Positions 1 to 64,000 of a DNA stretch of 64,000 nt are shown here, piece after piece; position 1 is the first letter of the stretch, and every line of letters starts with the position of its first letter. The DNA comes from a virus. The position numbers were made by a program, and so were the translations under genes. The DNA is taken from the IMG/VR virus record IMGVR_UViG_3300025127_000013, positions 62,001 through 126,000 of that record. One strand, given 5' to 3'. The notes under the pieces were generated by a model. That model saw nothing but the letters and a program-made list of their open reading frames with translations, searched no databases and was not told where the DNA came from.

Positions 1-1106
1 CTCAAGGTAAAGAAATAACCAATGCTTCTATTAAGCTTGATCGCATTACATATTTTAATAGAACTTACAACACTCAAATGGAATTGAAAAAAGATCGTAC
101 AATGCCACAAAATCCAGTTGAATACGAGAGCTTTAGATTTTTCACTAGCCGAGCCGAAGACGGTAAACTACTATCTTATCCAAGAGCACCTTTATCAACT
201 GTATTATCTTTTGATGATTTCTTCAATACGACACCGGTGGCCGCTGTCCGGGCAACCCTACCGGTCGGTGCGGAGACCGTTACCGGAATTGAGTCTGTAG
301 GCCCGGTCGTGACCGCCGCGACAGGACCAAAGTCAGTCGATGCATTCTCACAATTAGTTCAGAGAAATTTTAACTTTACTAATTTTAATGATGGTCTCTT
401 AAGAGAGGGTATAACTTGGAAGGATGACTACAGATTAAATCTGTTCCAGTATAAATTTTTCATTGATGACGATAGATTTAATAGAGCAACAACCGTTGGT
501 CCGTCTGGCATTGCATCTGTTAGTCCTACAAAAGAAGGTCACTCAAGAGATCTACATAGAATTACTATTAAAATTGAGGATGATTCATATCTAGCTTTAA
601 TAGCTATAATTGATACTTACGATAGAATTTACACAAATTTTAAAAATAATTATTATGATTTGGCACTAGAACAATGTTCTTATAACGAATACTCTGAAAG
701 ATTTAATGATTTTTTTGTATCAGCAATTAAAGAGAAATTTCCCGGTATTCTCAATCCATGGGCTAAAATGGTCTCTGTGTATGTGCAGTACATAAATATG
801 TTTACAAATAGTTTTGAAGGTAGCTATGTAGAAATGGTTGATTTTGGAGAAAAAATGTTAAACAGCATTAGGCCCGAAACGGGAACTTTGGATCGGTTAG
901 TAAGTGTAAATGATGCATTTGCTTCGTTTAATAATCGTTTACAAAATTTAAAAAATCTAGCAGAGGTGGATTATGAAACTTATAGTCGTACTCAAGTAAT
1001 AAGTATTGATAATGACATTGAAAGAGGTATATTGGATCACATCGCCGATCATTCTGTTTTGTCTAATTCATTGGAGCCATTTCCTGACCCACCGGAGTCT
1101 CTGTAA
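1..1106 (+). CDS. Virion structural protein, 5'-partial (unrecognised)
   Basis: The frame is open to the left window edge (codons readable from base 3), so the gene very likely starts upstream; the first internal ATG is at 78. At least 342 residues are encoded. I recognise no domain. The protein is soluble-looking, aromatic- and Asn-rich, and joined to the next gene by a TAATG overlap, which places it in a run of co-translated tail or baseplate-type genes. An internal stretch at about 225-335 is strikingly G+C-rich (about two thirds G+C) and encodes a small-residue loop of Val, Ala, Gly and Thr, unlike the rest of the gene. Function not assigned. Confidence 0.6.
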   Translation, partial: QGKEITNASIKLDRITYFNRTYNTQMELKKDRTMPQNPVEYESFRFFTSRAEDGKLLSYPRAPLSTVLSFDDFFNTTPVAAVRATLPVGAETVTGIESVGPVVTAATGPKSVDAFSQLVQRNFNFTNFNDGLLREGITWKDDYRLNLFQYKFFIDDDRFNRATTVGPSGIASVSPTKEGHSRDLHRITIKIEDDSYLALIAIIDTYDRIYTNFKNNYYDLALEQCSYNEYSERFNDFFVSAIKEKFPGILNPWAKMVSVYVQYINMFTNSFEGSYVEMVDFGEKMLNSIRPETGTLDRLVSVNDAFASFNNRLQNLKNLAEVDYETYSRTQVISIDNDIERGILDHIADHSVLSNSLEPFPDPPESL

Positions 1107-1669
1107 TGATTAAAATACCATTTGAAACATCGCAAATTAAAAAACAACCAAAGCTTCAAACTAAAAATAAAAATAAGTTTATATTAAGTGACAAAATTGT
1201 TAATAAAAATATTGAACCAACACTGTTTAATGTTCAAAATGCCGCAATTTCTATGAAGGCTATATCAAACCCAGCCGCTAGTCGTCCGGTTGTTAGAACA
1301 ATTGAAACCGACCTGCCAAAGATTTCTATCGCTACTTTAATTGAAATGAATGTTGGTCTTAGTAGTTTGAAAGAAGACTTTTCTTTATTAGAAGATAACA
1401 GCCCACAAATTGATTTATCAAACTCAAATATTATATCTAATGTTGAATTGGACAATCTTACTAACGAACCAATTAAACCCAGTGGGTTTGAACTAGCTAA
1501 CGATCCTTTCTACGAACTTGATGATAATAGATTGCCCGGAGCAAATAGCAATGACTTACAAAATGCAAAAGCTTTTATTCCTCCAATTGATTCTTCACAA
1601 ATACTAGAAGGTTTGCATGTTTTTAATCAAAGTGAAAATTATTTTGGCAAAAACAAATACTATAAATGA
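1106..1669 (+). CDS. Hypothetical protein, 187 aa, tail module
   Basis: It starts with ATG overlapping the stop of the previous gene (TAATG), implying translational coupling. The N-terminus is very basic (Lys/Asn-rich, first ~35 residues) and the rest is acidic and disordered-looking, with many Asn, Ser, Leu and Pro and no transmembrane segment. I do not recognise a family. Its position between larger structural genes suggests a minor virion or assembly protein; this is inference from context only. Confidence 0.55.
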   Translation: MIKIPFETSQIKKQPKLQTKNKNKFILSDKIVNKNIEPTLFNVQNAAISMKAISNPAASRPVVRTIETDLPKISIATLIEMNVGLSSLKEDFSLLEDNSPQIDLSNSNIISNVELDNLTNEPIKPSGFELANDPFYELDDNRLPGANSNDLQNAKAFIPPIDSSQILEGLHVFNQSENYFGKNKYYK

Positions 1670-1679
1670 GAGATAATTA

Positions 1680-2513
1680 ATGAGTACAACGAATAATGCA
1701 ATATTTACTGATAGAGATAGAGATATAGAAGCTGGAAGTCTCGATGTATTAGAAGAAGATTTAACTACAGTTATTCCTAATAATACTCAATTAATGGTGG
1801 GCAGCAATGTCCTAACTGATGGCGAAGTCATTGATACTAATAGTTTTACATACGAAAATGCAGTGCTGAACATAGGCTTACAAACAGAAAATTTCTTAAA
1901 TATATCACCTGAACAATTTGAACTTTACTCTCAGACTTTAAACGACAGTATTGGTCTTATGGTTATTAATATGGACAATGTTACAGTAGTTGATGGTAAG
2001 GCTTTAACTGAAACAGTCCCGATGTTCGCACACACTGCTAATGATTCGTTAGCTGATCCAGAGATAAATATGAGTTTTCAATATGGTTCACAACATGCCA
2101 GTGGTATCTTACCCATGGATGAAATATCATATGAGCCATTCGGGCCGGAGGCATATAACTCTGGTGAATTTACATCTCTTAAAAATAAGTTTGGATATGA
2201 AATACTTTCTGATGAGCCCGAATCGGCTGCTTATTATGAAACAGAAATTAGAATTAATAATAGCATTAATGATTTAGTAAGAGACATCGCTTCTGGTCTT
2301 CTTACAACTAGACCATTAACAAAAACGACTGCCAGATTAGAATTAACAGATGAACTATTTCAATCTATTACGACCGATGAAAAAATAAGCACCCGAGCTT
2401 CATTGTCGCCGTCTAGTGCAGCGACAACACCAGTTGAAATCTCTGTCCCGGTTACCAGCGGAGGAGCAACAGGTGGCGGTGGAGGCTCTGGAACCGACGG
2501 GAGCGGTTACTGA
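1680..2513 (+). CDS. Hypothetical structural protein, 277 aa, Gly-rich tail
   Basis: It follows the previous gene by 10 bp, with GAGA before the ATG as a weak ribosome site. The body is acidic. The last ~35 residues are Ser/Thr/Gly/Ala low complexity with a run of five Gly, ending in Gly-Ser-Gly-Tyr; the end of the gene is clearly more G+C-rich than its body. The gene at 54320 also ends in a Ser-rich low-complexity tail closing with Ser-Gly-Tyr, so the two may share a C-terminal attachment peptide. No family recognised; likely a tail or baseplate component by context. Confidence 0.55.
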   Translation: MSTTNNAIFTDRDRDIEAGSLDVLEEDLTTVIPNNTQLMVGSNVLTDGEVIDTNSFTYENAVLNIGLQTENFLNISPEQFELYSQTLNDSIGLMVINMDNVTVVDGKALTETVPMFAHTANDSLADPEINMSFQYGSQHASGILPMDEISYEPFGPEAYNSGEFTSLKNKFGYEILSDEPESAAYYETEIRINNSINDLVRDIASGLLTTRPLTKTTARLELTDELFQSITTDEKISTRASLSPSSAATTPVEISVPVTSGGATGGGGGSGTDGSGY

Positions 2514-5365: not shown

Positions 5366-5376
5366 CTAAAAACTAG

Positions 5377-5387: not shown

Positions 5388-5402
5388 AGAAGAGGTAATA
5401 AT

Positions 5403-6425: not shown

Positions 6426-7559
6426 ATGCCAGCAAATTACGAACCACTTGATGTCAATACCGACTCAACAACCACAAAGACTATCTTACATGAAGTAATT
6501 CCATTAACCGGAACTATTGTAAGTGGTACATACGACAGTCCAGATGGCACATCTTTTAACATTAAGAATTATACTCATGGTATGTTTCAATCAGTCTATG
6601 ATTATCCATTCCTTAGTTCTTCTGCAAACCACATATTTGACTTAACAGTTTGTATACATTCTGGTTCTTCTTTAAGCTCGTCCACTCCCGGCACCCAACA
6701 AGCCAAGAAAATTAATACATATACACAGTTTGCTCAAGTTCTTCTCGGCTTTGAAGACACTGGATTAAACACAGTTGAAGTCTTTGAACCTGATCTGAAC
6801 ATCACTGACAACAACAACCAAATGAAAGAAGTATTTGTTATTCCTTTCTCGCGACTTGTAACAAAAGATCAGATTAAGAAAGGTTCTTTTTCTATCACTC
6901 TTGGAACTGGCTCGCATGCCTTCCCATTTGATAGCGGGGCCCCCGGAGATTCAAGACTGAAAATTCAAGATCTCTCAGCTAGTGAGCAAGGCGGAACATC
7001 ACCACATGTCGGCGGAGACTATGGTGTATTATATGTCTCCTCTGGTAGTCAACCATTTGCAACTAATCTTGTACCTGCGGGCCACGGCCCGGCCAATGCC
7101 GAAGATGATCACTTGGCGGTTGGAGCAGTATTCTATCAAGCCGGTATCGCTGTTATAACTGGTTCTGTTTTTGATCAAGTAAGTGGATCTTTTATAACAA
7201 CTGGTGGCGATACTGCAACATTCTCTGATGCCATAACAGGATCAGCTATTAGTGCCTCTTGTGATGCTATCAGACACAGAATCGGCGATATATCGTTTAA
7301 CAACTCCACAGAAATCAACTCTACAATTTACTTCTGCAGATTACCTGTTAATAAGTTTAACTATAGCACAAACCCAACATATACAAGCGGCAGTAAAATA
7401 CAAGTAAAAAGAACTGCAAGTGATTTACCAATCGCTTATGTGTCTACGATTGGATTGTATAATACCAGAAATGAATTGTTGGCCGTCGCAAAACTTTCCG
7501 AACCTCTTAAGAAGACACCACAGAATGAGTTGACAATTAGAGTTCGATTGGACTACTAA
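6426..7559 (+). CDS. Tail/fibre-associated structural protein A, 377 aa
   Basis: The ATG follows AACGGAG. The C-terminal ~90 residues resemble those of the next gene: a Phe/Val-Asn-Tyr-Ser-x-Asn-Pro segment, then Tyr-Val-Ser-x-Ile/Val-x-x-Tyr, Asn-Glu/Lys-Leu-x-x-Val-Ala-x-Leu-Ser-x-Pro and an Arg/Lys-Leu-Asp ending. The two genes are therefore tandem paralogues that diverged in their N-terminal parts. The composition is typical of exposed virion proteins (Gly, Ser, Thr, Asn). No catalytic motif seen. Confidence 0.6.
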   Translation: MPANYEPLDVNTDSTTTKTILHEVIPLTGTIVSGTYDSPDGTSFNIKNYTHGMFQSVYDYPFLSSSANHIFDLTVCIHSGSSLSSSTPGTQQAKKINTYTQFAQVLLGFEDTGLNTVEVFEPDLNITDNNNQMKEVFVIPFSRLVTKDQIKKGSFSITLGTGSHAFPFDSGAPGDSRLKIQDLSASEQGGTSPHVGGDYGVLYVSSGSQPFATNLVPAGHGPANAEDDHLAVGAVFYQAGIAVITGSVFDQVSGSFITTGGDTATFSDAITGSAISASCDAIRHRIGDISFNNSTEINSTIYFCRLPVNKFNYSTNPTYTSGSKIQVKRTASDLPIAYVSTIGLYNTRNELLAVAKLSEPLKKTPQNELTIRVRLDY

Positions 7560-9699: not shown

Positions 9700-9715
9700 A
9701 TGTTTGGAGGTTATT

Positions 9716-10648
9716 ATGAATCACTTGGGTTATGCCTGCATTAATATGGGCTTTTCATCGCTGCCAAAGAAACAACGGATTACGACAAACCGCAGCATGA
9801 TTAGAAGAACATTCGACGATCGCGGTATTGATTATGCATCTGAATTAGCATTACAAAATCTTCGTGACCTGTACACAATTCTAGAGTGGAATTTACAGCA
9901 CGATATTTACTTTTACCGACTGTCATCAGACATTATACCGTGGGCTTCAGAGTATAGTTTGGAAAGCATGCCTAATTTCGGTGCAATTCATGCTGCAGCA
10001 TTGAAAGCTGGTAACTTTGCTCGCAAACACGGCATGCGACTTACAGCACACCCCGGCCCATTTAACAAGCTTGCATCACCAAAGGAGCGAGTATTTGAGC
10101 TTACAAAAACTGATTTATCTATCCATGGTGAGTTATTTGATCTAATTGGTCTTCCTCGTACTCCGTATGCAAAACTCAACATTCATGTGGGTGCTGCTTA
10201 CGGTGATAAGCCATTCGCACTCGATAACTTTTGTAGAAACTTTGAACGGTTGCCTGAGTGTGTTCGCTCTCGCTTGACTGTTGAGAATGATGACAAGGAA
10301 TCTTTGTATTCAACTCAGGAACTTTATGAAGGAGTTTACAAGCGAATTGGCATTCCGATTGTATTTGACTATCATCATCATATGCTTCACACCGGTGGGC
10401 AAACTGAGCAGGAAGCTCTAGAGCTTGCATTGTCTACTTGGGGTGACATCAAGCCTGTTGTTCATTATTCAGAGTCCCGTTGCCTTGAACACAACAATCC
10501 TAAGATTAAGCCACAAGCACACTCTGACTTAGTGTATAATACCTTGAACAACTATGGTCATGAGTTTGATATCATGATTGAAGCTAAACATAAAGAGTTG
10601 GCACTGTTCCGATATCGGGAGAACGAAAAGTGTCTGATCGCAAAGTGA
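9716..10648 (+). CDS. uvsE: UV-damage endonuclease (UvdE/UvsE)
   Basis: I place the start at ATG 9716, five bases after GGAGG, rather than an in-frame TTG at 9704 that overlaps the ribosome site; this gives 310 residues, normal for bacterial UvsE. The N-terminus (Leu-Gly-Tyr-Ala-Cys-Ile-Asn-Met) and the TIM-barrel metal ligands are recognisable: Thr-Ala-His-Pro-Gly, Leu-Asn-Ile-His-Val-Gly, Val-Glu-Asn-Asp, Phe-Asp-Tyr-His-His-His and Val-His-Tyr-Ser. The family nicks DNA 5' of UV photoproducts to start repair. It is first in its own transcription unit, and its end overlaps the next start by 19 bp. Confidence 0.9.
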   Translation: MNHLGYACINMGFSSLPKKQRITTNRSMIRRTFDDRGIDYASELALQNLRDLYTILEWNLQHDIYFYRLSSDIIPWASEYSLESMPNFGAIHAAALKAGNFARKHGMRLTAHPGPFNKLASPKERVFELTKTDLSIHGELFDLIGLPRTPYAKLNIHVGAAYGDKPFALDNFCRNFERLPECVRSRLTVENDDKESLYSTQELYEGVYKRIGIPIVFDYHHHMLHTGGQTEQEALELALSTWGDIKPVVHYSESRCLEHNNPKIKPQAHSDLVYNTLNNYGHEFDIMIEAKHKELALFRYRENEKCLIAK

Positions 10649-10857: not shown

Positions 10858-11792
10858 AAAATGCAGAAGCTAAGAAAATATTACAAGGAGTACTTGGAAG
10901 ATGCTCTGACAAAGGTAGTGAACTACTTTTCAGTTGTCCGGTCTGCAATCATCACAAAAATAAGTTTTCTGTCAATATTAATAAGAATGTTTATAAGTGT
11001 TGGATTTGTGATTATAGGGGCCGTAATATTAGGCGTATTGTGCGTCGGTTTGGCAACCACAACCAACTTGCTTCGTGGGACCAACTATTCGGGCGGCAAG
11101 ATTTGGAAAGATTCGCTGATCTCTTTATGGAATCAAAGCCTGAAGAAGTCGTACAAAAATTAGAATTGCCAGACGAGTTTATAAGCTTAGCTACCGATAA
11201 CTTGCCAGCCACATCTATTTATGCTTTTAATTATCTTTTAAAAAGAGGTGTAACTAAAGCTGACATACTAAAATGGAAAATAGGATATTGTTTTAGTGGT
11301 GAATACCGAAATAGAATAATTGTGCCATCGTTTGATGAAGATGGCGATGTAAGCTACTTTATTGCTAGATCTTATAGTGGCGATTCTTACAAGTATAAAA
11401 ATCCAAGAGCCTCAAAAAATATTACTTTTAATGAACTATATATCGACTGGAATAAAGACCTAGTATTGGTCGAAGGAGTATTTGATGCACTGGTCGCCGG
11501 AAATGCTGTTCCTATATTGGGTTCAACCCTACGGTCAGGGTCCGACTTATTACGAAAGATTGTACGAAACGACACCCCAATCTACATCGCACTCGATCCC
11601 GATGCAGCCAAAAAAGAAAGAAGGATTATTAAAATGCTTCTTGAGTACGACATTGAACTTTACAAAGTAGATGTATCTGGATATGAAGATGTTGGTTCAA
11701 TGCCAAAATCTATTTTTGACGAAAGAAAAAGACAAGCCAAGTTTATAGATACAGAAAACTATCTGTTGCTTGACATGTTATCGGCAGTATAA
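10854..11792 (+). CDS. dnaG: DNA primase (zinc finger + TOPRIM)
   Basis: A 312-residue primase of DnaG/T4 gp61 type. An N-terminal zinc ribbon has Cys28, Cys31, Cys49 and Cys52. The central part has the DnaG-like Arg-Ile-Ile-Val-Pro-Ser-Phe block, and the TOPRIM core shows Leu-Val-Glu-Gly (about residue 206) and Ala-Leu-Asp-Pro-Asp (Asp247, Asp249). It would make RNA primers for lagging-strand synthesis together with the DnaB-type helicase at 60972. There is no extended C-terminal helicase-binding domain, as in gp61-type phage primases. ATGA overlap with the preceding small gene. Confidence 0.85.
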   Translation: MKNAEAKKILQGVLGRCSDKGSELLFSCPVCNHHKNKFSVNINKNVYKCWICDYRGRNIRRIVRRFGNHNQLASWDQLFGRQDLERFADLFMESKPEEVVQKLELPDEFISLATDNLPATSIYAFNYLLKRGVTKADILKWKIGYCFSGEYRNRIIVPSFDEDGDVSYFIARSYSGDSYKYKNPRASKNITFNELYIDWNKDLVLVEGVFDALVAGNAVPILGSTLRSGSDLLRKIVRNDTPIYIALDPDAAKKERRIIKMLLEYDIELYKVDVSGYEDVGSMPKSIFDERKRQAKFIDTENYLLLDMLSAV

Positions 11793-16200: not shown

Positions 16201-16466
16201 GTGCCGAGAAATCACTGTCGGCAATGGCTATCCGCTTAGCATTGTTGGGAGTTTCATCATTGCCAAAGTCAGACTTATTTATCCTTGATGAGCCGGGCAC
16301 AGCACTGGACGAAGACAATATGTCGGGTTTTATTCAGATTTTGGAACTAATTAAGGTATATTTCAAGAACGTTTTGTTGATCTCCCACCTTGATTCGCTC
16401 AAAGATTGTGTTGATATGCAAATCGTAATTGATAAAAAAGCAGGATATGCAAGGGTCAACCAATGA
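13299..16466 (+). CDS. Single-chain Mre11-Rad50 (SbcD-SbcC) nuclease-ATPase fusion
   Basis: I place the start at GTG 13299, five bases after AGGAG, giving 1055 residues. Residues 1-~330 are an Mre11/SbcD phosphoesterase: Asp-Ile-His, Asn-Thr-Gly-Asp, Gly-Asn-His-Asp, Tyr-His-Gly and Gly-Asp-Ile-His. From ~370 the chain is Rad50/SbcC: Walker A Gly-Lys-Asn-Phe-Ser-Gly-Lys-Ser (~397-406), coiled coil, zinc hook Cys728-Glu-Tyr-Cys731, second coil, signature Ala-Ser-Gly-Ala-Glu-Lys-Ser-Leu (~966) and Walker B Phe-Ile-Leu-Asp-Glu-Pro (~992). T4 encodes these as separate gp47 and gp46. The complex processes DNA ends for recombination-dependent replication and host DNA breakdown. ATGA overlap with the next gene. 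Confidence 0.9.
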   Translation: MSIKIAHVSDIHVRKLKYHKEYRAVFEQLYEKLREEKPDIIVNTGDTFHTKLDLSPEAIRMMSELFVGLADIAPYHMILGNHDMNLKNSGRLDAISPIVDYLEHPNIHFHKYASVVEVAPGIDLHVLSIVDPENWQKQLPDDRVNIALYHGSVVGSVTDSGWMMTHGDISLEELEKYDYAMLGDIHKTDQKVDNDGRARYPGSLVQQNHGESNDKGYLIWDIKDKNTWATRHVSLTNPKPFITIELTRKGRMPKNISIPLGARLRLVSNNNLPLDSMKRAVDVAKHRFKPETISFLNRASGERGSVEALTDGLQTENLRDIKVQEELIDEYLVDYEVQEKTLEKVYELNKKYNKIVEDNEDVSRNINWKLVDFEFDNLFNYGDGNNVSFEELSGIIGIFGKNFSGKSSIIDGILWTLFNTTSKNERKNLNVINQNKEDCRGKVTIQINDLVYTVERKAKKYIKRLKGEETLEAKTELNFEVYDPVMGETTSLNGLTRTLTDANIRKQFGTLDDFAVSSLSSQHGALAFIDEGSTRRKEIIAKFLDLELFDRKFKLAKEDSVDLKGALKRLETKNYDDELDSVNASLVEARQQMSEHKSICTALKEAVVELTDVRNEIESKIDSIPAEIIDISAVNKEIRLKENQITKHILENDEFADTLKTKQGVYKKIVSFLDEFDLQKFENQRQQINQYKEQLKTQEDNLDKLLEEHNYILKKEGLLHDHEYDPNCEYCSNNEFVKEAQAAVSRKADVEAQQADTLQTINIITEEIKSLNPTDVETQFERYNKIESNKHTVSSEIADLNLEIERNKNSVLFLEDKLKELCAKRDEYEENKEAIENLEALVTQLNKCHYKIEQTQNKIDTCDAATLELVKSVGSYEQKIETIKEQKQEYQDLQTEFAAYHLFMICMHPNGIAYDVIKKKIPVINEEIAKVLANIVDFEVFFEAAGNKFDINIKHPKYEERPIEMASGAEKSLSAMAIRLALLGVSSLPKSDLFILDEPGTALDEDNMSGFIQILELIKVYFKNVLLISHLDSLKDCVDMQIVIDKKAGYARVNQ

Positions 16467-17599
16467 ACGACAACGATAATAACGAATTTGATTTTCTGCC
16501 TCCCGCAGAGGCACCACCCTCCTTTAATCAGGAGAAAGACCATTATCACGAAGAAGTAGAAGCAGAAGACTTTGGAATGGTAGAAGATTTCGGATTACAG
16601 ATGGAATACTCTGATGAAGATTTACTGCCTGAGAACACAGCCCCATCATCTATTAATGTGGGGTTTGTTGGTGTTGGTGGTGGTGGAAACAAAATGGCTA
16701 ATGCTTTTATTGAGCTTGGCTTCAACAAAACATTGCTTGTTAACACAACGGGCAAAGACATTCCTAAGAATGTTGAAGAGGATCATGTTGTCCTCATTCC
16801 CGATGCCGACGGTATTGGCAAAAATGTAGAATATGGAAAAGAGGTATTAACACAAAATGGAGCGATTGTTGAAGATGCTCTCCGCATCAAATTGGGGAAA
16901 GTTGATTGGTTATTCGTCCTTGCTGGCGGTGGCGGTGGGACCGGTAGCAGTGTCACTGCTCTTCATCCTGTGTTTGAGCGGTACCTTCGCTCTGTTCAAG
17001 CTTCTGGACAAGTAGTATATGTCACATCTTGGCCCACAGCACAAGAAAACCTTAATCCTACAATCGCTAGAAATGCCCTCACTCTTGCGAATGATGTGTC
17101 AAAACACCCACACATCATACTAGACAACGAACGAGCAACAAGATTACTTCGTGGTAGAATTGGTATGCTGGGTATGTATCCGGTTGCCAACACACAATTT
17201 GCAAAGTCATTAGCCCAAGTTTTGAAACTCTCCAATGAGGACTCACCGATCCAATCTTTTGATAGTAAGGACTTAGAAACTTGTCTGGGCAATGACGGTC
17301 GTGCCTTCATAGGCTCAACTATGATTAAAGATCCAAATACTGGTAAGCTTGGATCGGTGATCCTCCACAACTGCATGAATCGCTCTGCATGCCCTCCACC
17401 CAAAGGCAAAGCTGCAGCAGGATCGTTGGTGCTGGTTGTGTCAGAAGAGATGGTAGCTGACCCAAGAGTTAGCAAAAATATTGAGTCGGCAATCGCTTAT
17501 GTCGGCGGTCGATGTGAAACACTTTTCTCTGGTGTTTATGTCAGAAAGAATGTGCCCGGATTGATTGCGATACTAAGTATGAATGGATTAGCAACATGA
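16463..17599 (+). CDS. FtsZ/tubulin-like GTPase
   Basis: A 378-residue protein with an acidic, disordered ~65-residue N-terminal extension followed by an FtsZ fold. Visible are the first glycine loop Gly-Val-Gly-Gly-Gly-Gly-Asn (about 67-77), the tubulin signature Gly-Gly-Gly-Gly-Gly-Thr-Gly-Ser (155-163), an FtsZ-like segment ending Ile-Leu-Asp-Asn-Glu-Arg, and a T7-loop-like Phe-Asp-Ser-Lys-Asp-Leu (Asp267, Asp270) before Ala-Phe-Ile-Gly-Ser. Both T7-loop acids needed for GTP hydrolysis are present, so an active polymerising GTPase is likely. It overlaps the Mre11-Rad50 gene upstream and the next gene downstream by ATGA. It could position phage DNA or capsids, or interfere with host division; these roles are inference. 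Confidence 0.85.
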   Translation: MNDNDNNEFDFLPPAEAPPSFNQEKDHYHEEVEAEDFGMVEDFGLQMEYSDEDLLPENTAPSSINVGFVGVGGGGNKMANAFIELGFNKTLLVNTTGKDIPKNVEEDHVVLIPDADGIGKNVEYGKEVLTQNGAIVEDALRIKLGKVDWLFVLAGGGGGTGSSVTALHPVFERYLRSVQASGQVVYVTSWPTAQENLNPTIARNALTLANDVSKHPHIILDNERATRLLRGRIGMLGMYPVANTQFAKSLAQVLKLSNEDSPIQSFDSKDLETCLGNDGRAFIGSTMIKDPNTGKLGSVILHNCMNRSACPPPKGKAAAGSLVLVVSEEMVADPRVSKNIESAIAYVGGRCETLFSGVYVRKNVPGLIAILSMNGLAT

Positions 17600-20850: not shown

Positions 20851-21297
20851 ATGAAGATTACCAAGAGACAACTTCACAAAATTATTCTTGAAGAATACAT
20901 GAAAGAAGAAAACATCACAGAGTATAGCGAAGAAGCAGAAGAATTAATTAGAAAAATGATAGGCGACGATGAATACAATCGCCGCCGTGCTCTTGAAATG
21001 CCTAAAGATCGAAACGATGGAAACACAGCCCCGATGCAAAAAACCTCTGATTCGGTAGAGGATAAGATTGCAAGTTTGGTTCAGGGTATGCAACCAGATG
21101 ATGTGGCCGAACTTTTTCAGTCCGTCTTTTCAAGATTACCCGGTGTAGAGATGCAGGATGATGAGCCCGATCCACCTTCTTTGTATGGCGATCCTAGAGA
21201 CGATGGCAGATCTCCAATCACACTTGGCCCTGTTAGAGAAGACTTTGATTTATCTGCACTACAAGAAATGATTCGTACAATGATTAGGGATGTATGA
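20851..21297 (+). CDS. Small protein with shared N-terminal helix, 148 aa
   Basis: It begins Met-Lys-Ile-Thr-Lys-Arg-Gln-Leu-His-Lys-Ile-Ile-Leu-Glu-Glu, almost the same leader as the gene at 17596, with an Ile-Leu-Glu candidate prohead-protease site. The rest is acidic and Pro-rich in the second half (Asp-Asp-Glu-Pro-Asp-Pro-Pro), ending in a helix. The last codons overlap the terminase ATG by 4 bp. Candidate head-core, packaged or small terminase-like accessory protein; unassigned. Confidence 0.6.
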   Translation: MKITKRQLHKIILEEYMKEENITEYSEEAEELIRKMIGDDEYNRRRALEMPKDRNDGNTAPMQKTSDSVEDKIASLVQGMQPDDVAELFQSVFSRLPGVEMQDDEPDPPSLYGDPRDDGRSPITLGPVREDFDLSALQEMIRTMIRDV

Positions 21298-22877
21298 GTT
21301 TTGAACTTACCAAAAAACAAAAGTTTCAAGAAATATTAAAGTGTGGTAAAGACCCAGCATACTTCTTGAAAAATTATGCCCGTATATCACATCCGATGCA
21401 CGGGCTAATCCTTTTTGACACATATGATTTTCAAGATACTTTATTAGACGATTTTAACGATTATAGATTTAATATTATCTTGAAAGCAAGACAACTAGGT
21501 ATTTCAACAATCACGGCCGGGTACATTTCTTGGCTTATGCTTTTTCATAAAGATAAGTCAATCCTTGTTATGGCAACTAAGTTTGCAACTGCTGGTAACC
21601 TTGTTAAAAAGGTTAAAAGCATTATGAAGAATTTGCCAGAGTGGATTCGCATAGCTACAATCTCGGTTGATAACCGAACATCATTTGAACTGTCTAATGG
21701 CTCTTCAATTAAGGCGGCCTCAACTTCTGGAGATGCTGGTCGTTCTGAAGCACTGTCATTACTTGTTCTTGATGAGGCTGCACACATTGAAGGTCTTGAA
21801 GAGTTGTGGACTGGTCTGTACCCCACACTGTCTACTGGTGGTCGTTGCATCGCACTGTCAACTCCTAATGGTGTTGGTAATTGGTTTCATAAAAACTGTG
21901 TTGATGCAGAAAGTGGAGCGAACAACTTTAATCTCACAACACTACCATGGGATGTTCATCCCGATAGAGATAAAGAGTGGTACAAAAAAGAAACCAGAAA
22001 TATGTCCAAGCGGCAGATTGCTCAAGAGCTTGAATGTAATTTCAACACTTCTGGCGAGACTGTAATTGATCCTGATTGTATGGAATGGCTTTTATCAAAT
22101 GTGTGTGAGCCAAAATATAGAACTGGTTTTGATAGAAACTTTTGGATTTGGGAAGAGTATGATCCTACATGTAATTATCTTATGGTTGCTGATGTAGCCA
22201 GAGGTGATGGTGCTGATTATTCTACTTTTCATATGGTTAAGTTAGAAACACTGCAAGTAGTTGGTGAGTATCAGGGTAAGCCAACTTTAGATATGTATGC
22301 TAATATGCTAAATCAAGTTGGTAGAGAATTTGGAAATGCAATGTTAGTTGTAGAAAACAACAATGTAGGCTTCTCAGTGCTTGACAAATTAATCGAAGCA
22401 CAATATCCGAACTTATACCACTCAGTCAAATCGACACACGAATATATCGAGCAGTATCAAGCAGAATATAGAAACAGTGCTGTTCCGGGTTTTACTACAT
22501 CATCAAAGACCCGACCCCTTATAGTAGCGAAATTAGAAGAGTTTATCAGAAATAAACTAATTACGGTATATTCTTCTCGTACAATTAATGAGATGAAGAC
22601 TTTTATTTGGAGGAATGGTCGCCCACAAGCTATGAAAGGTTATCATGATGATCTCATCATGGCTCTTGCAATTGCATGTTGGGTTAGAGATACAGCGATT
22701 CAAAACAGTGCAAGAGATTTAAATTACCAACGGGCTTTTGTTGATGCAATCATAACTTCCAAAACCACCATGAATACACAAATAAAAGGTCAAATAGGAT
22801 ACAAAAAACAAGAATCTTTTGATAAACTTAATGAAGCAAAAAGTATTTATGACCAGTACAAATGGATTATAAAGTGA
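21294..22877 (+). CDS. terL: Terminase large subunit (DNA packaging ATPase-nuclease)
   Basis: A 527-residue TerL of T4 gp17 type. The ATPase half has the Walker A-like Ala-Arg-Gln-Leu-Gly-Ile-Ser-Thr (about 64-72) and Walker B Leu-Leu-Val-Leu-Asp-Glu-Ala (about 155-161) with the catalytic Glu. The RNase H-like nuclease half has Val-Ala-Asp-Val-Ala-Arg-Gly (about 297), Val-Glu-Asn-Asn (about 351) and His-Asp-Asp (about 450). It docks on the portal, encoded next, and drives DNA into proheads. A recognisable small subunit is not seen; it may be one of the unassigned genes upstream. Confidence 0.92.
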   Translation: MSFELTKKQKFQEILKCGKDPAYFLKNYARISHPMHGLILFDTYDFQDTLLDDFNDYRFNIILKARQLGISTITAGYISWLMLFHKDKSILVMATKFATAGNLVKKVKSIMKNLPEWIRIATISVDNRTSFELSNGSSIKAASTSGDAGRSEALSLLVLDEAAHIEGLEELWTGLYPTLSTGGRCIALSTPNGVGNWFHKNCVDAESGANNFNLTTLPWDVHPDRDKEWYKKETRNMSKRQIAQELECNFNTSGETVIDPDCMEWLLSNVCEPKYRTGFDRNFWIWEEYDPTCNYLMVADVARGDGADYSTFHMVKLETLQVVGEYQGKPTLDMYANMLNQVGREFGNAMLVVENNNVGFSVLDKLIEAQYPNLYHSVKSTHEYIEQYQAEYRNSAVPGFTTSSKTRPLIVAKLEEFIRNKLITVYSSRTINEMKTFIWRNGRPQAMKGYHDDLIMALAIACWVRDTAIQNSARDLNYQRAFVDAIITSKTTMNTQIKGQIGYKKQESFDKLNEAKSIYDQYKWIIK

Positions 22878-22885: not shown

Positions 22886-24895
22886 ATGGCCGATAACAAA
22901 AACAATCCCAGAAACAATCAATCACAATTATTTAAATCTTTGACAAGATTATTTTCTGGGCCAATAATCAATTACAGATCACAATCAGGTCGTAGAATTC
23001 GCAGGCAACACCTTGACAAGTTTTCGTCTAGATTCAAATCAGCTAGCGGCCAGCAGTTTAAAAAGACTCATTATAGTCCGCTTGATCAAATCGGTGCAAA
23101 TGCAATCTCCAATCAAAGAAGATCTGAAAGATATATTGATTTCGATCAGATGGAGTATATGCCTGAGATTGCATCATCGCTTGATATCTATGCAGACGAA
23201 ATGACTACCTATTCTGATCTCAGGCCAATGCTAAACATACATTGTCCCAATGAAGAATTGAGAGCGGTACTAGCAATTTTATACGAAAATATTCTTAATG
23301 TAGAATATAATTTATTTGGCTGGTCAAGAACAATGTGCAAGTATGGTGACTTTATGCTGTACTTGGATATTGATGATAAGTATGGAGTTCAATCAGCAAT
23401 ATCTCTGCCTCCCCAAGAAGTGGAAAGATTAGAGGGACAAGATGCGACCAACCCAAATTATATACAATATCAGTGGAACTCCGCAGGCTTAACATTTGAA
23501 AACTGGCAAGTTGCACACTTTAGAGTATTGGGTAATGATAAGTATACACCTTACGGAACATCCATTCTTGAGCCGGCCCGTCGCATATGGCGACAGTTGA
23601 CTTTGATGGAAGATGCGATGATGGCTTATCGTGTTATTCGTTCCTCCGAAAGAAGAGTATTTAAAATTGATGTTGGTGGAGTTCCACCACAAGAGGTTGA
23701 GCAGTTCATGGAAAAAACTGTTTCACAACTTAAAAGAAATTCAGTCGTAGATCCAGACACTGGTCGTGTCGATCTACGATATAACCCAATGTCTATTGAA
23801 GAAGATTATTTTATTCCTGTTCGTGCAGGCTCAACAACTGATATTCAAACCCTTGCAGGTGCCTCTAATATAACAGCTATCGATGATGTCAAGTATTTAA
23901 GAGATAAATTATTCTCAGCACTTAAGATACCACAATCATATCTTACAATGGGCGAGGGTGCTACTGAAGATAAAACCACATTAGCACAAAAGGACATTCG
24001 ATTTGCTAGAACTATTCAGAGACTACAGAGAGTCGTTATTTCGGAGCTTGAAAAGGTTGGCATTATCCATCTTTACACTCTGGGCTTCCGCGGAGATGAC
24101 CTGCTTTCATTTAAGTTGTCACTTAACAATCCGTCAAAGATCGCTGAGATTCAAGAGATTGAGCACTGGAAGGCCAAGTTTGATATTGCCGGTGCGGCTA
24201 CAGAGGGTTATTTTTCCCGTCGTTGGGTTTCTGAGAATATTTTTGGAATTACTAACGAAGAGTTTATTCGCAATCAAAGAGAGATGTATTATGACAGAAA
24301 ACATGATGCCTCGCTTCAACAAGTTGCAGAAGGTGCAGCAGCCGCTGGTGCTGGCGATGGCTTAGGCGGTGGCTTGGGCGGAGGTGATTTGGGTGGAGAC
24401 TTGGGCGGTGATTTAGGAACTGAAACTCCACCAGCCACTGGCCCCACAGAGATCCCAGCGACTGATGTTACCGATACGACACCAGCACCCGCAGGTGATA
24501 CTGGTGGAGGCGACTCGCCGCTATTGGCAGTCCCTCCCGGTTCAAGAACTTCCAAGAGCTTAAATCCATCCGATCCAAAGGTTAGCACCTATGCTAAGAG
24601 TAGCTACAGAAGAAAAGACGGAGTAAATGATGCTCGCCCGGCCGGCAAAAGAGCACAATCATATGCTTCGCTCGCGACACCTGAAACTAACACGATGCGA
24701 AAAAACAATCTTGGTTACCCTGAGTTAAGATCATTGGGCAGAGGAGTTTTTACTGAGGAGACATCTATATATTCTGATAGAGAATTAGACGAGGAACAAA
24801 AAATCCTTGAAATGAATAATTCAGTGAAATCACTAATTGATGTTTTAGATAAAAAAGATAAACTACTGACGGAGCAAAAAGATGAAACACAATAA
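22886..24895 (+). CDS. Portal vertex protein (gp20-like)
   Basis: A 669-residue protein directly after terminase. The N-terminal two thirds match the T4 gp20 layout: Glu-Tyr-Met-Pro-Glu-Ile-Ala-Ser-Ser-Leu-Asp-Ile-Tyr-Ala-Asp-Glu, then Tyr-Gly-Thr-Ser-Ile-Leu-Glu-Pro-Ala-Arg-Arg, the Arg-Val-Ile-Arg-Ser-Ser-Glu-Arg-Arg-Val-Phe stretch and Lys-Ile-Pro-Gln-Ser-Tyr-Leu. The C-terminal ~180 residues are extra compared with T4 gp20 (about 520): a Gly/Ala/Asp repeat region (about 480-520), a Pro/Thr-rich linker and a helical end. It forms the dodecameric DNA gate and nucleates head assembly. Confidence 0.88.
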   Translation: MADNKNNPRNNQSQLFKSLTRLFSGPIINYRSQSGRRIRRQHLDKFSSRFKSASGQQFKKTHYSPLDQIGANAISNQRRSERYIDFDQMEYMPEIASSLDIYADEMTTYSDLRPMLNIHCPNEELRAVLAILYENILNVEYNLFGWSRTMCKYGDFMLYLDIDDKYGVQSAISLPPQEVERLEGQDATNPNYIQYQWNSAGLTFENWQVAHFRVLGNDKYTPYGTSILEPARRIWRQLTLMEDAMMAYRVIRSSERRVFKIDVGGVPPQEVEQFMEKTVSQLKRNSVVDPDTGRVDLRYNPMSIEEDYFIPVRAGSTTDIQTLAGASNITAIDDVKYLRDKLFSALKIPQSYLTMGEGATEDKTTLAQKDIRFARTIQRLQRVVISELEKVGIIHLYTLGFRGDDLLSFKLSLNNPSKIAEIQEIEHWKAKFDIAGAATEGYFSRRWVSENIFGITNEEFIRNQREMYYDRKHDASLQQVAEGAAAAGAGDGLGGGLGGGDLGGDLGGDLGTETPPATGPTEIPATDVTDTTPAPAGDTGGGDSPLLAVPPGSRTSKSLNPSDPKVSTYAKSSYRRKDGVNDARPAGKRAQSYASLATPETNTMRKNNLGYPELRSLGRGVFTEETSIYSDRELDEEQKILEMNNSVKSLIDVLDKKDKLLTEQKDETQ

Positions 24896-57656: not shown

Positions 57657-57658
57657 AG

Positions 57659-59702: not shown

Positions 59703-59712
59703 AGAAAATACT

Positions 59713-59762: not shown

Positions 59763-59963
59763 ATGAAGAAAACACACCATGATATTTGTGGTGCTTGTGA
59801 AAAGGTGCCGCTTGACTGGACACCAAATGAATTTCCTCAGCCCGGGGAAATAGCTGAGAGGATATTATCAAAAAATCCTGAATGGGCTAAATTGCATTAC
59901 ATGATTTCAATGGCTATTTCAAGACGAGACAAATTATGGAGAGAATATTATGAAAACAGATAA
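59763..59963 (+). CDS. Small hypothetical protein, 66 aa
   Basis: The start is ATG 59763, six bases after GGAGGG; an in-frame TTG at 59712 lies upstream of the promoter and is rejected. It begins Lys-Lys-Thr-His-His-Asp-Ile-Cys-Gly-Ala-Cys-Glu-Lys, a possible metal site of two Cys and two His, then a Pro-rich turn and a helical Trp/Arg-rich end. It overlaps the exonuclease gene by 14 bp and is first in its transcription unit. Unknown function, possibly a regulator or cofactor of the exonuclease. Confidence 0.65.
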   Translation: MKKTHHDICGACEKVPLDWTPNEFPQPGEIAERILSKNPEWAKLHYMISMAISRRDKLWREYYENR

Positions 59964-60921
59964 GAAAAGAGTTATTGTTATTGATGCACTTAACATGTTC
60001 TTAAGAGCTTATATTGTGGATCCTTCATTGTCAACTAACGGTGATCCCATTGGTGGTATTAAAGGATCCTTTAAGATTCTTCAAAAGCTTGTAAGAATGA
60101 CCAAGCCAGATTCTGTTGTTATTGTTTGGGATGGCCCAAATGGTTCCCGCAAACGGCGGAGTATGGATAAGAACTACAAGTCTGGCCGTAAGCCCTTACG
60201 GTTAAATCGTTCTGTGCAGAACCTTACCGAAGACGAGATTTTACAAAATAAGATATGGCAGCAAAGCAGGACAATTGATTATATCAACCAGATGCCCATT
60301 GTTCAGATAATGATCCCAGAGGTCGAAGCTGATGATGTCATAGCATATGTTACTAGAATGAGTCATTACGATGGTTGGCAAAAGGTTATTATCTCAAACG
60401 ATAAGGATTTTTTGCAGCTTTGTGATGAGGACACCATTCTGTATCGTCCAACAGTCGATGAGGTCATGAATACCAAGAGAGTAATTGAAACATTTGGTGT
60501 TCACCCTTCTAATATGGCTTTGGCTCGCTCTATTATCGGCGATTCATCGGACAATCTGCCCGGTATCAAGGGTGCTGGTGTGACATCTGTCAAAAAGAGA
60601 TTGTCATTTTTAGCATCTGAGAAAGATTATACGATTGATGATGTGATATTATTCTGTGAAAATGCAGATAGTAAGCTAAAATTCTTCACAAATATTATTG
60701 ACGGTCGCCAAGTGATCGAACATAATTACAAAATGATGCAACTCTATTCTCCTCAACTTTCGATTCAATCTAAGAAGTTTGTTGACAATGCAATAGAGAA
60801 CTTTGAATGTAATTTCAACCAGTTAGAAATCTATCGGAAAATGATGGAAGATGGATTCGGTGAACTGAACTGGGAAGACTTAAAAACAAATATGAATCGA
60901 ATTAAAATTGATTGTTTCTAA
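59950..60921 (+). CDS. 5'-3' exonuclease / flap endonuclease (T4 RNase H-like)
   Basis: A 323-residue FEN-family nuclease. Conserved acidic motifs are visible: Val-Ile-Asp-Ala-Leu-Asn-Met-Phe near the N-terminus, Val-Trp-Asp-Gly, Pro-Glu-Val-Glu-Ala-Asp-Asp (two metal ligands), Ser-Asn-Asp-Lys-Asp-Phe, and Gly-Asp-Ser-Ser-Asp-Asn-Leu-Pro-Gly-Ile-Lys-Gly-Ala-Gly, the helix-hairpin-helix with its ligands. Length equals T4 RNase H (305) closely. It removes RNA primers and flaps on the lagging strand, needed because the short polymerase here has no such domain. Confidence 0.9.
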   Translation: MKTDKKRVIVIDALNMFLRAYIVDPSLSTNGDPIGGIKGSFKILQKLVRMTKPDSVVIVWDGPNGSRKRRSMDKNYKSGRKPLRLNRSVQNLTEDEILQNKIWQQSRTIDYINQMPIVQIMIPEVEADDVIAYVTRMSHYDGWQKVIISNDKDFLQLCDEDTILYRPTVDEVMNTKRVIETFGVHPSNMALARSIIGDSSDNLPGIKGAGVTSVKKRLSFLASEKDYTIDDVILFCENADSKLKFFTNIIDGRQVIEHNYKMMQLYSPQLSIQSKKFVDNAIENFECNFNQLEIYRKMMEDGFGELNWEDLKTNMNRIKIDCF

Positions 60922-60922
60922 G

Positions 60923-60950
60923 TTGACTTTACAGAAAACTCAGTTATACT
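60923..60950 (+). promoter_or_regulatory. Sigma70-type promoter for the helicase-nrdJ unit
   Basis: TTGACT at 60923-60928, a 16-bp spacer and TATACT at 60945-60950, right after the exonuclease stop; start near 60957. Confidence 0.7.
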
Positions 60951-60971
60951 TATTAATTCACGGGAGCAACT

Positions 60972-62375
60972 TTGCAAAGTAAGCCTAATTTCGCAGACTA
61001 TGGTAAATCATTTCAAGAAAACCTAGTTCAACTGATTTACCAAGATCGACCGTTTGCGGATCAGATTACTGAGGTACTGGATCTAAATTTTTTAGAACTG
61101 GAATACCTGCGAGTATTTTCACGAAAAATAGTTAGTTATCGTGACAAGTACGGCTCACATCCATCTGCGAATGCTGTTGCATCAATCCTGAACACTGAGT
61201 TAGAGGACGAAGATGAGATTGTCAGATTACAGGTAAAAGAATATTTTACCAAGATTCTGACAAAAGATATTGATGGTGATGCTGACTATGTTAAAGAAAC
61301 TTCACTGGATTTCTGCAGAAAACAAAATCTGAAAGAAGCAATGATGAAGTCTGTTGGCTTGCTTCAGTCCTGCTCCTTCGATGAGATATCCAAGATTATA
61401 AATGATTCACTTGTATTGGGTTCCGAAAATAATTTTGGTCATGACTATCTTGCTGACTTTGAAGAGAGATACAAGCCCCGCTTCAGAAAGCCAGTAACAA
61501 CCGGTTGGGACGATATTGATAAGATATGTGGCGGCGGTCTCGGCCGCCAAGAATTGGGTGTTGTGGTGGCTCCTACAGGAGCCGGCAAATCAATGGTGTT
61601 GGTGCATTTAGGAGCCCAAGCGATATTGGAGGGCAAGACTGTTGTGCATTACACTCTTGAACTTCAAGACACTGTAGTTGCCTCTAGATATGACAGTTGT
61701 ATTACTGGTTTCCCACTCTCTAATCTCTTGTCATTCAAAGAAGAGATTTACGAATCTGTTAAAGATATTGAGGGCAGACTTATAGTAAAAGAGTATCCGA
61801 CAAAATCAGCCTCAACAAACAGCATTCGATCACACCTCACCAAACTTAAAAAAAGAGGAACCGTTCCGGGCATGATTATTGTTGATTATGCTGATTTGCT
61901 CAAGCCTGTGGTTATTAGAAAAGAAAAAAGAGCTGAACTTGAGTCAATATATGAGGAACTGAGAGCCTTATCTACAGAATTTGAGTGCCCTATTTGGACT
62001 GCTTCGCAAACTAACCGTTCTGGTTTGAATGCTGAAGTGATTACAATGGAGCAGATTTCCGAAGCATTTAATAAATGCTTTGTGGCGGATTTTATTATGT
62101 CCGTGTCCCGCACTGTTGAGGACAAACAAAATAATACTGGTAAGATTTTTATTGCAAAAAATCGTAACGGACCCGATGGGATGATATATAATATCTTTAT
62201 GGACACTTCTAATGTAAAAATCAGGGTGCTACCTAAGTCTAATACAATCATACCAACCAATACAGGACAACAACCTCCTGTGGCGAGTAATCCAACTTCT
62301 CTAACTCCGAAAGAACAAAGAGAAGTTTTACAAGACAAATATGCTAAATTCAGAAAACTAAAAAGGAAAAAATAA
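60972..62375 (+). CDS. dnaB: Replicative DNA helicase (DnaB/gp41-type)
   Basis: The start is TTG 60972, five bases after GGGAG. The 467-residue product has an N-terminal helical domain (about 1-150) and a RecA-type C-terminal domain: Thr-Gly-Trp-Asp-Asp-Ile-Asp, Walker A Ala-Pro-Thr-Gly-Ala-Gly-Lys-Ser (about 201-208), Tyr-Thr-Leu-Glu-Leu, Walker B Ile-Ile-Val-Asp-Tyr-Ala-Asp-Leu (about 300) and Ala-Ser-Gln-Thr-Asn-Arg. Length fits T4 gp41 (475). It unwinds DNA at the fork and partners the primase at 10854. A basic Lys/Arg tail ends the protein. Confidence 0.92.
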   Translation: MQSKPNFADYGKSFQENLVQLIYQDRPFADQITEVLDLNFLELEYLRVFSRKIVSYRDKYGSHPSANAVASILNTELEDEDEIVRLQVKEYFTKILTKDIDGDADYVKETSLDFCRKQNLKEAMMKSVGLLQSCSFDEISKIINDSLVLGSENNFGHDYLADFEERYKPRFRKPVTTGWDDIDKICGGGLGRQELGVVVAPTGAGKSMVLVHLGAQAILEGKTVVHYTLELQDTVVASRYDSCITGFPLSNLLSFKEEIYESVKDIEGRLIVKEYPTKSASTNSIRSHLTKLKKRGTVPGMIIVDYADLLKPVVIRKEKRAELESIYEELRALSTEFECPIWTASQTNRSGLNAEVITMEQISEAFNKCFVADFIMSVSRTVEDKQNNTGKIFIAKNRNGPDGMIYNIFMDTSNVKIRVLPKSNTIIPTNTGQQPPVASNPTSLTPKEQREVLQDKYAKFRKLKRKK

Positions 62376-62378
62376 ATA

Positions 62379-64000
62379 ATGAGAACTTTAAGCACCATCA
62401 GAAAATTCAGATTGTCCGATTCCTTCGTGGAACCATACAAAACCGCAGAGGTACCTTGGGGCCCGCTCGGTTATGTAACTTTTAAAAGAACTTATGCCCG
62501 TAGGCTGAGTGAAATCGAACCAGATGCCACTGGCACAGAAGAATGGTGGCAAACATGCCGCCGTGTTATTGAAGGTATGTTCAATATTCAGAAGGAGCAT
62601 GTCGTCGGCCTTGGCCTTGAGTGGAACGATAATAAGGCCCAGAAAACAGCAAAGGATGCTTTTGATCGCCTCTTTAATTTGAAGTGGACCCCACCCGGCC
62701 GCGGCTTATGGATGATGGGCACTAAATTTGTTGAGGAGCGAACAGGAGCAGCTTTGTTTAATTGTGCCTTTCGTTCTACTCAAGACATTGATCGAAAAGG
62801 CGGCTACATTTTTTCTTGGATTATGGATGCTTTAATGGTCGGTGTCGGTGTTGGTTTTGATACCAAGGGTGCTGGCACCATCACCATCAAAGAGCCAACA
62901 TATACTAATGACACACATGTTATTGATGATTCTCGCGAGGGCTGGGTCAACTCCGTTCATATTCTGCTTGATGGGTTTTTTCACGGTGCTAATGTTCCGA
63001 AGTTTGATTACTCTAATATTAGACCAGAGGGTGCCCCAATTCTTGGTTTTGGTGGCACCTCATCCGGTGCAGGACCACTTATTGAGCTTCATGACAATTT
63101 AACAGAGCTATATTCTGGCAAGATCGGAGAGCCTATATCCTCTGTGGATATCGTAGACACAGAAAATTTAATTGGTCGTTGTGTCGTAGCTGGGAATGTT
63201 CGTCGCTCTGCAGCCCTTGCGATTGGCGAACATGACGACATTCGTTATCTCGAAATGAAAAATGATCAAGAAAAACTGTATCACCACCGGTGGGGCTCCA
63301 ACAACTCATTTAATGCTGAAGTTGGAATGGATTATGAATGGCATGCCGAACAGTCACAAAACAATGGTGAACCGGGTTATATTTGGCTTGAGAATGCCCG
63401 TGCATTTGGCCGGATGAAAGACGGAGTGAATTATGATGATGCAGAGGTCATGGGCTTCAATCCTTGTGTTGAACAAAGTCTTCACAATGCTGAAATGTGT
63501 TGTCTCGTTGAGACCTTTCCTGCAAAGCATGAAGACTATGAAGATTATGTAAAAACACTTAAGTGTGCTTATCTTTATGGCAAAACTGTCACCCTTGTTA
63601 ACACCCATTGGCCTGAAACAAATGCTAAGATGCTTAAGAACCGTCGAATCGGCCTGTCTCAATCAGGAATTGTACAAGCTTTCAATAAGCACGGCCGCCG
63701 CTCAATGATGGAATGGTGTGACGATGCATACGACTATGTTCGCGAATTAGATACGGAATATTCCAATTGGCTGTGTGTTCCTAGATCTATTAAGATGACA
63801 TCTATAAAACCATCTGGTACTGTTTCCCTTCTTAATGGCTCAACCCCCGGTATTCATTTTCCAGAAAGTGAATTTTATATTCGTCGTATTAGATTTTCCA
63901 ACTCTTCTCCAATCGTACCACAGCTACAGGAAGCTGGTTACAGAACTGAGAAAGACAAATACTCGCCCAACACCACTGTTGTTGAGTTTCCGATCCATGA
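62379..64000 (+). CDS. nrdJ: Class II (adenosylcobalamin) ribonucleotide reductase, 3'-partial
   Basis: It starts at ATG 62379, 3 bp after the helicase stop, and stays open to the window end (540 codons seen). It matches monomeric ribonucleoside-triphosphate reductase of the Lactobacillus type: Trp-Gly-Pro-Leu-Gly-Tyr-Val-Thr-Phe-Lys-Arg-Thr-Tyr-Ala-Arg, Pro-Gly-Arg-Gly-Leu-Trp, Phe-Asn-Cys129, Gly-Gly-Thr-Ser-Ser-Gly, Val-Ala-Gly-Asn-Val-Arg-Arg-Ser and His-His-Arg-Trp-Gly-Ser-Asn-Asn. The radical Cys363 and Glu365 (Asn-Pro-Cys-Val-Glu) and the redox Cys374 keep the spacing of the well-studied enzyme (Cys408, Glu410, Cys419). It makes deoxynucleotides without oxygen dependence but needs host vitamin B12. 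Confidence 0.92.
   Translation, partial: MRTLSTIRKFRLSDSFVEPYKTAEVPWGPLGYVTFKRTYARRLSEIEPDATGTEEWWQTCRRVIEGMFNIQKEHVVGLGLEWNDNKAQKTAKDAFDRLFNLKWTPPGRGLWMMGTKFVEERTGAALFNCAFRSTQDIDRKGGYIFSWIMDALMVGVGVGFDTKGAGTITIKEPTYTNDTHVIDDSREGWVNSVHILLDGFFHGANVPKFDYSNIRPEGAPILGFGGTSSGAGPLIELHDNLTELYSGKIGEPISSVDIVDTENLIGRCVVAGNVRRSAALAIGEHDDIRYLEMKNDQEKLYHHRWGSNNSFNAEVGMDYEWHAEQSQNNGEPGYIWLENARAFGRMKDGVNYDDAEVMGFNPCVEQSLHNAEMCCLVETFPAKHEDYEDYVKTLKCAYLYGKTVTLVNTHWPETNAKMLKNRRIGLSQSGIVQAFNKHGRRSMMEWCDDAYDYVRELDTEYSNWLCVPRSIKMTSIKPSGTVSLLNGSTPGIHFPESEFYIRRIRFSNSSPIVPQLQEAGYRTEKDKYSPNTTVVEFPIH

What the first reader, a model, noticed from the sequence alone, without database searches (positions are those of the whole stretch)
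1..64000. CCWGG (CCAGG/CCTGG) appears to be absent from the whole window
Reading the sequence through, I found no CCAGG and no CCTGG, although at this base composition some 40-50 would be expected by chance. The reason shows in codon choice: every Pro-Gly pair I checked is written CCC-GG or CCG-GG (for example at 6941, 16294, 25013, 38786, 44324), while CCA and CCT are the commonest Pro codons elsewhere. CCSGG and other palindromes (GGCC, GATC, CCGG) remain frequent. This is the pattern expected from strong selection against a CCWGG-specific restriction system (EcoRII type) in the host range, and may help predict the host.
Basis: partly seen in the sequence, partly recalled or inferred. Interest (0 to 1): 0.75.

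Follow-up and report, generated by a model that had tools for sequence, protein, structure and literature searches.

The report
Phage genome purged of restriction sites
A marine T4-like phage has removed every CCWGG site and about 98% of RCGY sites from its genome; the RCGY purge tracks a restriction-modification gene pair that the phage lineage itself carries, so it appears to be cleared of its own weapon's targets, while the CCWGG purge is best explained by a restriction enzyme in its hosts.

Summary
The count is right: CCWGG = 0 in 64,000 bases (0 in the whole 130,761-base record, against 112 ± 7 after shuffling synonymous codons), while CCSGG is 2.5-fold over-represented. TTCGAA, CAGCTG, GAGCTC and CTCGAG are also nearly absent. 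Codon evidence shows selection against the words, not 5mC deamination.

The record ends inside a C5 cytosine methyltransferase gene. In sister contigs this gene is followed by a restriction-endonuclease gene whose predicted fold matches R.HinP1I (GCGC) and MspI. Nine phage contigs with this cassette (about seven lineages, gene order and location shuffled) are all RCGY-depleted (observed/expected 0.01-0.27; one 0.65). Ten long relatives without it are not (0.81-0.99). Two carriers found afterwards by the endonuclease alone were predicted correctly. So RCGY avoidance is most likely self-avoidance of a phage-borne R-M system of inferred RCGY specificity.

CCWGG avoidance is independent of that cassette: it switches at least 11 times on the terminase tree, and no phage gene was found that tracks it. 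Host unknown; nothing tested at the bench.

The parts
1..64000 (.). No CCAGG and no CCTGG; CCSGG over-represented (65)
   Evidence: whole record
1..64000 (.). RCGY nearly purged: 11 sites left, at 11033, 11042, 13318, 16369, 25731, 28355, 30755, 31382, 36492, 45146 and 58413 (about 218 expected); GCGC 0. The methyltransferase gene linked to this lies beyond the window end (record 130112-130759, i.e. 4.1-4.8 kb past base 64000, cut by the record end)
1..64000 (.). Further avoided palindromes: TTCGAA 0, GAGCTC 0, CTCGAG 0, CAGCTG 1, AGGCCT 1, GTCGAC 1
6941..6946 (+).
21294..22877 (+). Terminase large subunit (T4-like); used to find relatives and build the tree
22886..24895 (+). T4-like portal protein gp20 (PF07230)

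Best explanation
The genome is shaped by restriction-site avoidance from two sources. (1) RCGY: the phage lineage carries a mobile type II restriction-modification cassette, a C5 cytosine methyltransferase next to a HinP1I-fold endonuclease, with inferred specificity RCGY. The endonuclease would cut DNA that has RCGY sites (host chromosome and/or competing phages). The phage survives because selection has removed about 98% of the sites from its own DNA and the methyltransferase can protect the few that remain. (2) CCWGG and several 6-mers: these are purged independently of that cassette, most likely under restriction by host enzymes with these specificities (EcoRII/MvaI type for CCWGG). Shown: the counts, the selection signature, the gene pair, its fold match, and its association with RCGY depletion. 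Inferred: the exact specificity, enzymatic activity, the biological target, and the host origin of CCWGG pressure.
For: Codon-shuffle: CCWGG 0/112, RCGY 17/699. Of 372 RCGY sites in sister phage G005 aligned to this phage, 2% persist versus 38-45% of control words; escapes 198 synonymous to 18 non-synonymous, with extra transversions at the outer R/Y positions that deamination cannot make. Arg after an R-ending codon: CGY 8 of 733, versus 332 of 1011 after a Y-ending codon. PF00145 methyltransferase in this record and none of 30 relatives searched. Methyltransferase homologues next to a homologous endonuclease in all carriers with enough sequence, in both gene orders and several genome positions. 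RCGY is the most avoided of 344 palindromes in 6 of 8 carriers; carriers 0.01-0.65 versus non-carriers 0.81-0.99, complete separation. Out-of-sample carriers L257 (1/70) and L261 (19/131). Endonuclease: AF2 pLDDT 83, Foldseek best hits HinP1I 8e-10 and MspI 4e-4; bacterial homologue in the same pair hits PF11463 R-HinP1I at 2e-11 with RCGY 2/21. CCWGG normal in carriers G032, G038 and G041, so independent.
Against: In the window's own record only the first ~216 residues of the methyltransferase are present; the endonuclease is read from sister contigs (methyltransferase 91% identical in L088). Specificity rests on depletion only; in carrier G041 mainly ACGT and GCGT are depleted, GCGC not at all. 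The sister clade L007-L010, in whose records no cassette was found, is mildly RCGY-poor (0.58-0.74 in the TerL region; 0.81 genome-wide in G005). The phage endonucleases themselves match no Pfam or NCBIfam model. Carriers are fewer independent lineages (about 7) than contigs. No host known, so host CCWGG restriction is untested.
Confidence: 0.74

Rival explanations
1. All avoidance, RCGY included, is driven by host restriction systems; the phage picked up a host R-M pair mainly for its methyltransferase, as protection.
For: Bacterial homologues of the methyltransferase exist, some with the same endonuclease family, and several such loci are RCGY-poor. Avoidance of host sites by phages is well documented (PMC6286503).
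Against: Strong RCGY depletion occurs only with carriage of the pair; the endonuclease is kept in every carrier with enough flanking sequence, which protection alone does not need; a methyltransferase that protected all sites would relax avoidance, not accompany it.
Confidence: 0.18
2. Mutational loss: methylation of RCGY and CCWGG by phage or host methyltransferases followed by 5mC deamination removed the sites.
For: C>T/G>A is the commonest single change at lost RCGY sites (158 of 234).
Against: The same share is seen at control RCGR sites (181 of 263); transversions at flanking positions are in excess; CGY Arg codons and Pro-Gly CCW-GG, which deamination can only change non-synonymously, are just as depleted.
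Confidence: 0.03
3. The CCWGG purge also comes from a phage-borne R-M system lying in the part of the genome missing from this record.
For: Phages of this family carry swappable methyltransferase/endonuclease-like pairs; the record is incomplete.
Against: Long CCWGG-avoiding records (146, 101 and 97 kb) have no C5 methyltransferase, and no gene cluster tracks CCWGG avoidance (exploratory, incomplete records).
Confidence: 0.25
4. Compositional or codon-usage artefact.
For: AT-rich genome with low CCW/GG density.
Against: Codon- and protein-preserving shuffles give z -15 and -35; close relatives of the same composition carry the sites.
Confidence: 0.01

Closest known systems
Restriction-site avoidance in phages (Rusinov et al. 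2018, PMC6286503)
   Same: Near-total loss of type II recognition words in a phage genome by synonymous change.
   Different: There the enzyme is the host's; here the strongest avoided word tracks genes carried by the phage lineage.
Chlorovirus R-M systems (reviewed in PMC7019647)
   Same: Virus-borne adjacent methyltransferase and endonuclease genes with 2-4 bp specificities; endonucleases thought to degrade host DNA.
   Different: Eukaryotic algal viruses with heavily methylated DNA; here a tailed phage with site purging.
Marseillevirus GATC R-M system (PMC7253447)
   Same: Scattered presence of an adjacent pair within one virus family; cuts DNA of relatives lacking it.
   Different: Different enzymes and N6-adenine methylation; a giant amoeba virus.
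R.HinP1I (G^CGC, PF11463) and MspI
   Same: Predicted fold of the phage endonuclease matches HinP1I best; GCGC is a subset of RCGY.
   Different: 16% identity; inferred site is degenerate (RCGY); conserved motif reads K-x-D...S-x-K; Pfam model not matched by the phage proteins themselves.

Membership tests
Restriction-site avoidance | Word count far below a composition- and codon-controlled expectation | tested here: met
Restriction-site avoidance | A matching restriction enzyme acts on the phage | tested here: inconclusive
   Cognate gene pair found for RCGY by association; none found for CCWGG
Type II R-M system | Methyltransferase with intact catalytic motifs | tested here: met
   PF00145 and PADLOC MTase_II hits; PCQ, ENV and RKR motifs conserved
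Type II R-M system | Adjacent cognate endonuclease | tested here: met
   In L091, L257, L089, L130, L132/L135, L133, L134 and L261; not readable in the window's record, which ends before it
Type II R-M system | Both enzymes act on the same site | not testable with these tools
   Needs bench assay; RCGY inferred from depletion
HinP1I family (PF11463) | HinP1I fold | tested here: met
   Foldseek E 8e-10, TM 0.59/0.65 on an AF2 model
HinP1I family (PF11463) | Sequence match above the Pfam cut-off | tested here: not met
   Phage proteins: no match; bacterial homologue L151: 44 bits over cut-off 25
HinP1I family (PF11463) | Cuts GCGC | not testable with these tools
   GCGC depleted in most carriers but not in G041
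Marseillevirus/chlorovirus-type viral R-M | Virion DNA methylated at the site | not testable with these tools
   No methylation data

The most novel reading that the evidence does not exclude
Marine T4-like phages exchange type II restriction-modification cassettes as weapons and rewrite their genomes to be free of the weapon's own sites; each lineage therefore bears a barcode of avoided words (RCGY, CATG, GTAC, GGCC, CCWGG) recording the enzymes it carries or meets.
Probability: 0.45. Interest if true: 0.8.

Novelty: new variant of a known kind. Interest (0 to 1): 0.62.

Why it matters
It warns against reading every avoided word in a phage as a host enzyme: the strongest one here points to the phage's own genes. 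It also offers a way to infer the specificity of an uncharacterised R-M pair from the avoidance it leaves behind. Close relatives (DnaE 94% identical) differ by about 700 sites, so the speed and order of purging and cassette gain become measurable. An RCGY-cutting enzyme would be a new specificity as far as I could find (apart from methyl-dependent GlaI, from memory).

Tried and rejected
Deamination as the cause: rejected on codon and substitution data. Near DNA matches in phage records: none; endonuclease in phage and plasmid records: none. Genome-wide bacterial scan with the endonuclease alignment: none; with the methyltransferase: many. First AF2 model (pLDDT 73) gave no fold match; a second with another first sequence and the bacterial homologue added did. 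G005 carries a methyltransferase and a PD-(D/E)XK-like small ORF and avoids CATG; its homologues come from the same lineage only, so that link stays anecdotal. A gene that tracks CCWGG avoidance was looked for by protein clustering and not found; EcoRII-C and MvaI/BcnI models rang nowhere, controls included, so uninformative. GTAC avoidance in G013: no methyltransferase of three Pfam families found. Paper searches for lytic phages with type II R-M pairs gave nothing direct.

Full report
Observation. CCAGG and CCTGG are both absent from the 64,000-base window, whereas CCSGG occurs 65 times. First-order expectation for CCWGG is 63, and it is the most depleted 5-mer under a maximal-order Markov model. 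The window is bases 62001-126000 of a 130,761-base virus record. Over the whole record, with protein sequence and codon usage fixed, CCWGG is 0 against 112.5 ± 7.5. Pro before GG is always CCC or CCG (100 of 100), although CCA and CCT make up 75% of Pro codons elsewhere, and the other two frames are empty too.

A larger signal was missed. RCGY (ACGT, ACGC, GCGT, GCGC) occurs 11 times in the window where about 218 are expected from CG contexts, and 17 times in coding sequence of the record against 699 ± 20. TTCGAA, CAGCTG, GAGCTC, CTCGAG and AGGCCT are also almost gone. GAGCTC is at zero in nearly all relatives.

Relatives. The terminase is T4-like; the nearest annotated phages are Flavobacterium phage immuto (48%) and Microcystis phage Mel-JY01 (44%). 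Eighty viral contigs encode a terminase 85-100% identical. Avoidance differs between close lineages: RCGY is near zero only in the window's own lineage (L001-L006), CCWGG is absent in many but normal in others, and GGCC is purged in yet others. On a tree of 68 terminases the avoid/normal state changes at least 11 times for CCWGG, 9 times for GGCC, once for RCGY and never for GATC.

Selection, not mutation. Aligning sister phage G005 to the window phage, 8 of 372 RCGY sites survive (2%), against 38% of YCGR, 38% of RCGR and 45% of RGCY. Single-step escapes are 198 synonymous to 18 non-synonymous. Changes at the two outer positions make up 18% against about 8% in controls and are almost all purine-pyrimidine exchanges. 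Arg codons after a purine use CGY 8 times in 733, against 332 in 1011 after a pyrimidine. Deamination of methylated C cannot explain these.

A phage-borne cassette. The record ends inside a gene for a C5 cytosine methyltransferase (record 130112-130759); none of 30 relatives searched has one. Homologues sit in other marine phage contigs, and in every one with enough sequence the methyltransferase is adjacent to a homologous endonuclease-like protein, in either gene order and at different places: before DnaE (G031, L257, L261), after DnaE (G032, G041), beside a ribonucleotide-reductase-like gene (G038), before a RecA-like gene (L132) or near an exonuclease-like gene (L133) (the neighbours in the last three are named by eye from their sequences). 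In G005, whose DnaE is 94% identical to that of the window lineage, the two flanking genes are adjacent with no cassette.

The cassette predicts RCGY depletion. Observed/expected RCGY is 0.02, 0.06, 0.01, 0.22, 0.17, 0.65, 0.26, 0.27 and 0.14 in nine carrier contigs and 0.81-0.99 in ten long non-carriers, a complete separation (Mann-Whitney p 1.4e-4); among 128 palindromes RCGY and its members ACGT and GCGC separate the two groups best. RCGY is the most avoided of 344 palindromic words in six of eight carriers. Carriers L257 and L261 were found afterwards through the endonuclease and fitted. The contigs are not all independent: about seven lineages. G041 is the weak case, with ACGT and GCGT depleted but GCGC normal, perhaps a recent gain or a shifted specificity. 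CCWGG is normal in carriers G032, G038 and G041, so the two avoidances are separate.

The endonuclease. Six phage proteins share a possible PD-(D/E)XK core (K-x-D ... S-x-K) and a C-terminal GPLTLQMKGSG...YH..Q block. They match no Pfam or NCBIfam model, and the five scanned match none in PADLOC. A bacterial homologue beside the same methyltransferase in Candidatus Thiovulum hits Pfam R-HinP1I above its cut-off, and that locus is RCGY-poor, 2 against 21. The profile of phage and bacterial proteins has one hit in the PDB, HinP1I (E 0.005). An AlphaFold model of the L134 phage protein (pLDDT 83) finds HinP1I bound to DNA first (E 8e-10), then free HinP1I, then MspI, and nothing else significant. 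HinP1I cuts GCGC, a subset of RCGY (established knowledge). Several other RCGY-poor bacterial loci pair the same methyltransferase family with a different PD-(D/E)XK-like protein.

Mechanism proposed. The phage brings an R-M pair whose endonuclease attacks DNA rich in RCGY, host or competitor; its own DNA is almost free of targets and any left can be methylated. Shown: counts, selection, gene pair, fold, association. Inferred: exact site, activity and target. Precedents in other viruses are the chloroviruses, where the endonucleases are thought to degrade host chromatin (PMC7019647), and the marseilleviruses, where they cut relatives lacking the system (PMC7253447). Avoidance of host restriction sites by phages is known (PMC6286503).

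CCWGG. No phage gene cluster follows CCWGG avoidance, and the long CCWGG-avoiding records carry no C5 methyltransferase, though records are incomplete. The host itself was not identified.

Noticed in passing
window 16463-17599: FtsZ/tubulin-like GTPase (PF00091, NCBIfam ftsZ 5e-12) in a T4-like phage, possibly a PhuZ-type tubulin.
   Followed up: no
window 9704-10648: UvsE-type UV damage endonuclease (TIGR00629, 1e-60).
   Followed up: no
L082 1-2417 (record start): Several adjacent proteins share the N-terminus M(K)LLFENWRKF/Y; may be a capsid-targeting signal of internal head proteins.
   Followed up: no
L099 18198-18755 and G005 119791-120567: A 185-aa PD-(D/E)XK-like ORF (weak PvuII hit) near an N6/N4 methyltransferase in a phage that avoids CATG (167 of 664); possibly a second self-avoiding cassette.
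   Followed up: partly
G013 (L102-L111): GTAC 59 against 414 expected, with no methyltransferase of three Pfam families found.
   Followed up: partly
G006 (L127-L129): TGYRCA 0 of 57 and TGRYCA 4 of 62: unusual degenerate words strongly avoided.
   Followed up: no
G038 (L222-L225): YGCR 134 of 647 and GGCC 5 of 157 avoided; a D12-type methyltransferase sits beside a small ORF with weak REase_II hits (L130 13598-14955).
   Followed up: no
L099 16534-17520: PurA-like adenylosuccinate synthetase in G005, keeping the GDEGKGK motif (so PurA-like rather than PurZ, by eye).
   Followed up: no
all TerL relatives L001-L081: GAGCTC is zero in every relative, across lineages that differ in other avoided words.
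   Followed up: partly
L138, L140, L142, L144, L150, L168: Bacterial loci pairing the same methyltransferase family with a different ~310-aa PD-(D/E)XK-like protein; all are RCGY-poor.
   Followed up: partly
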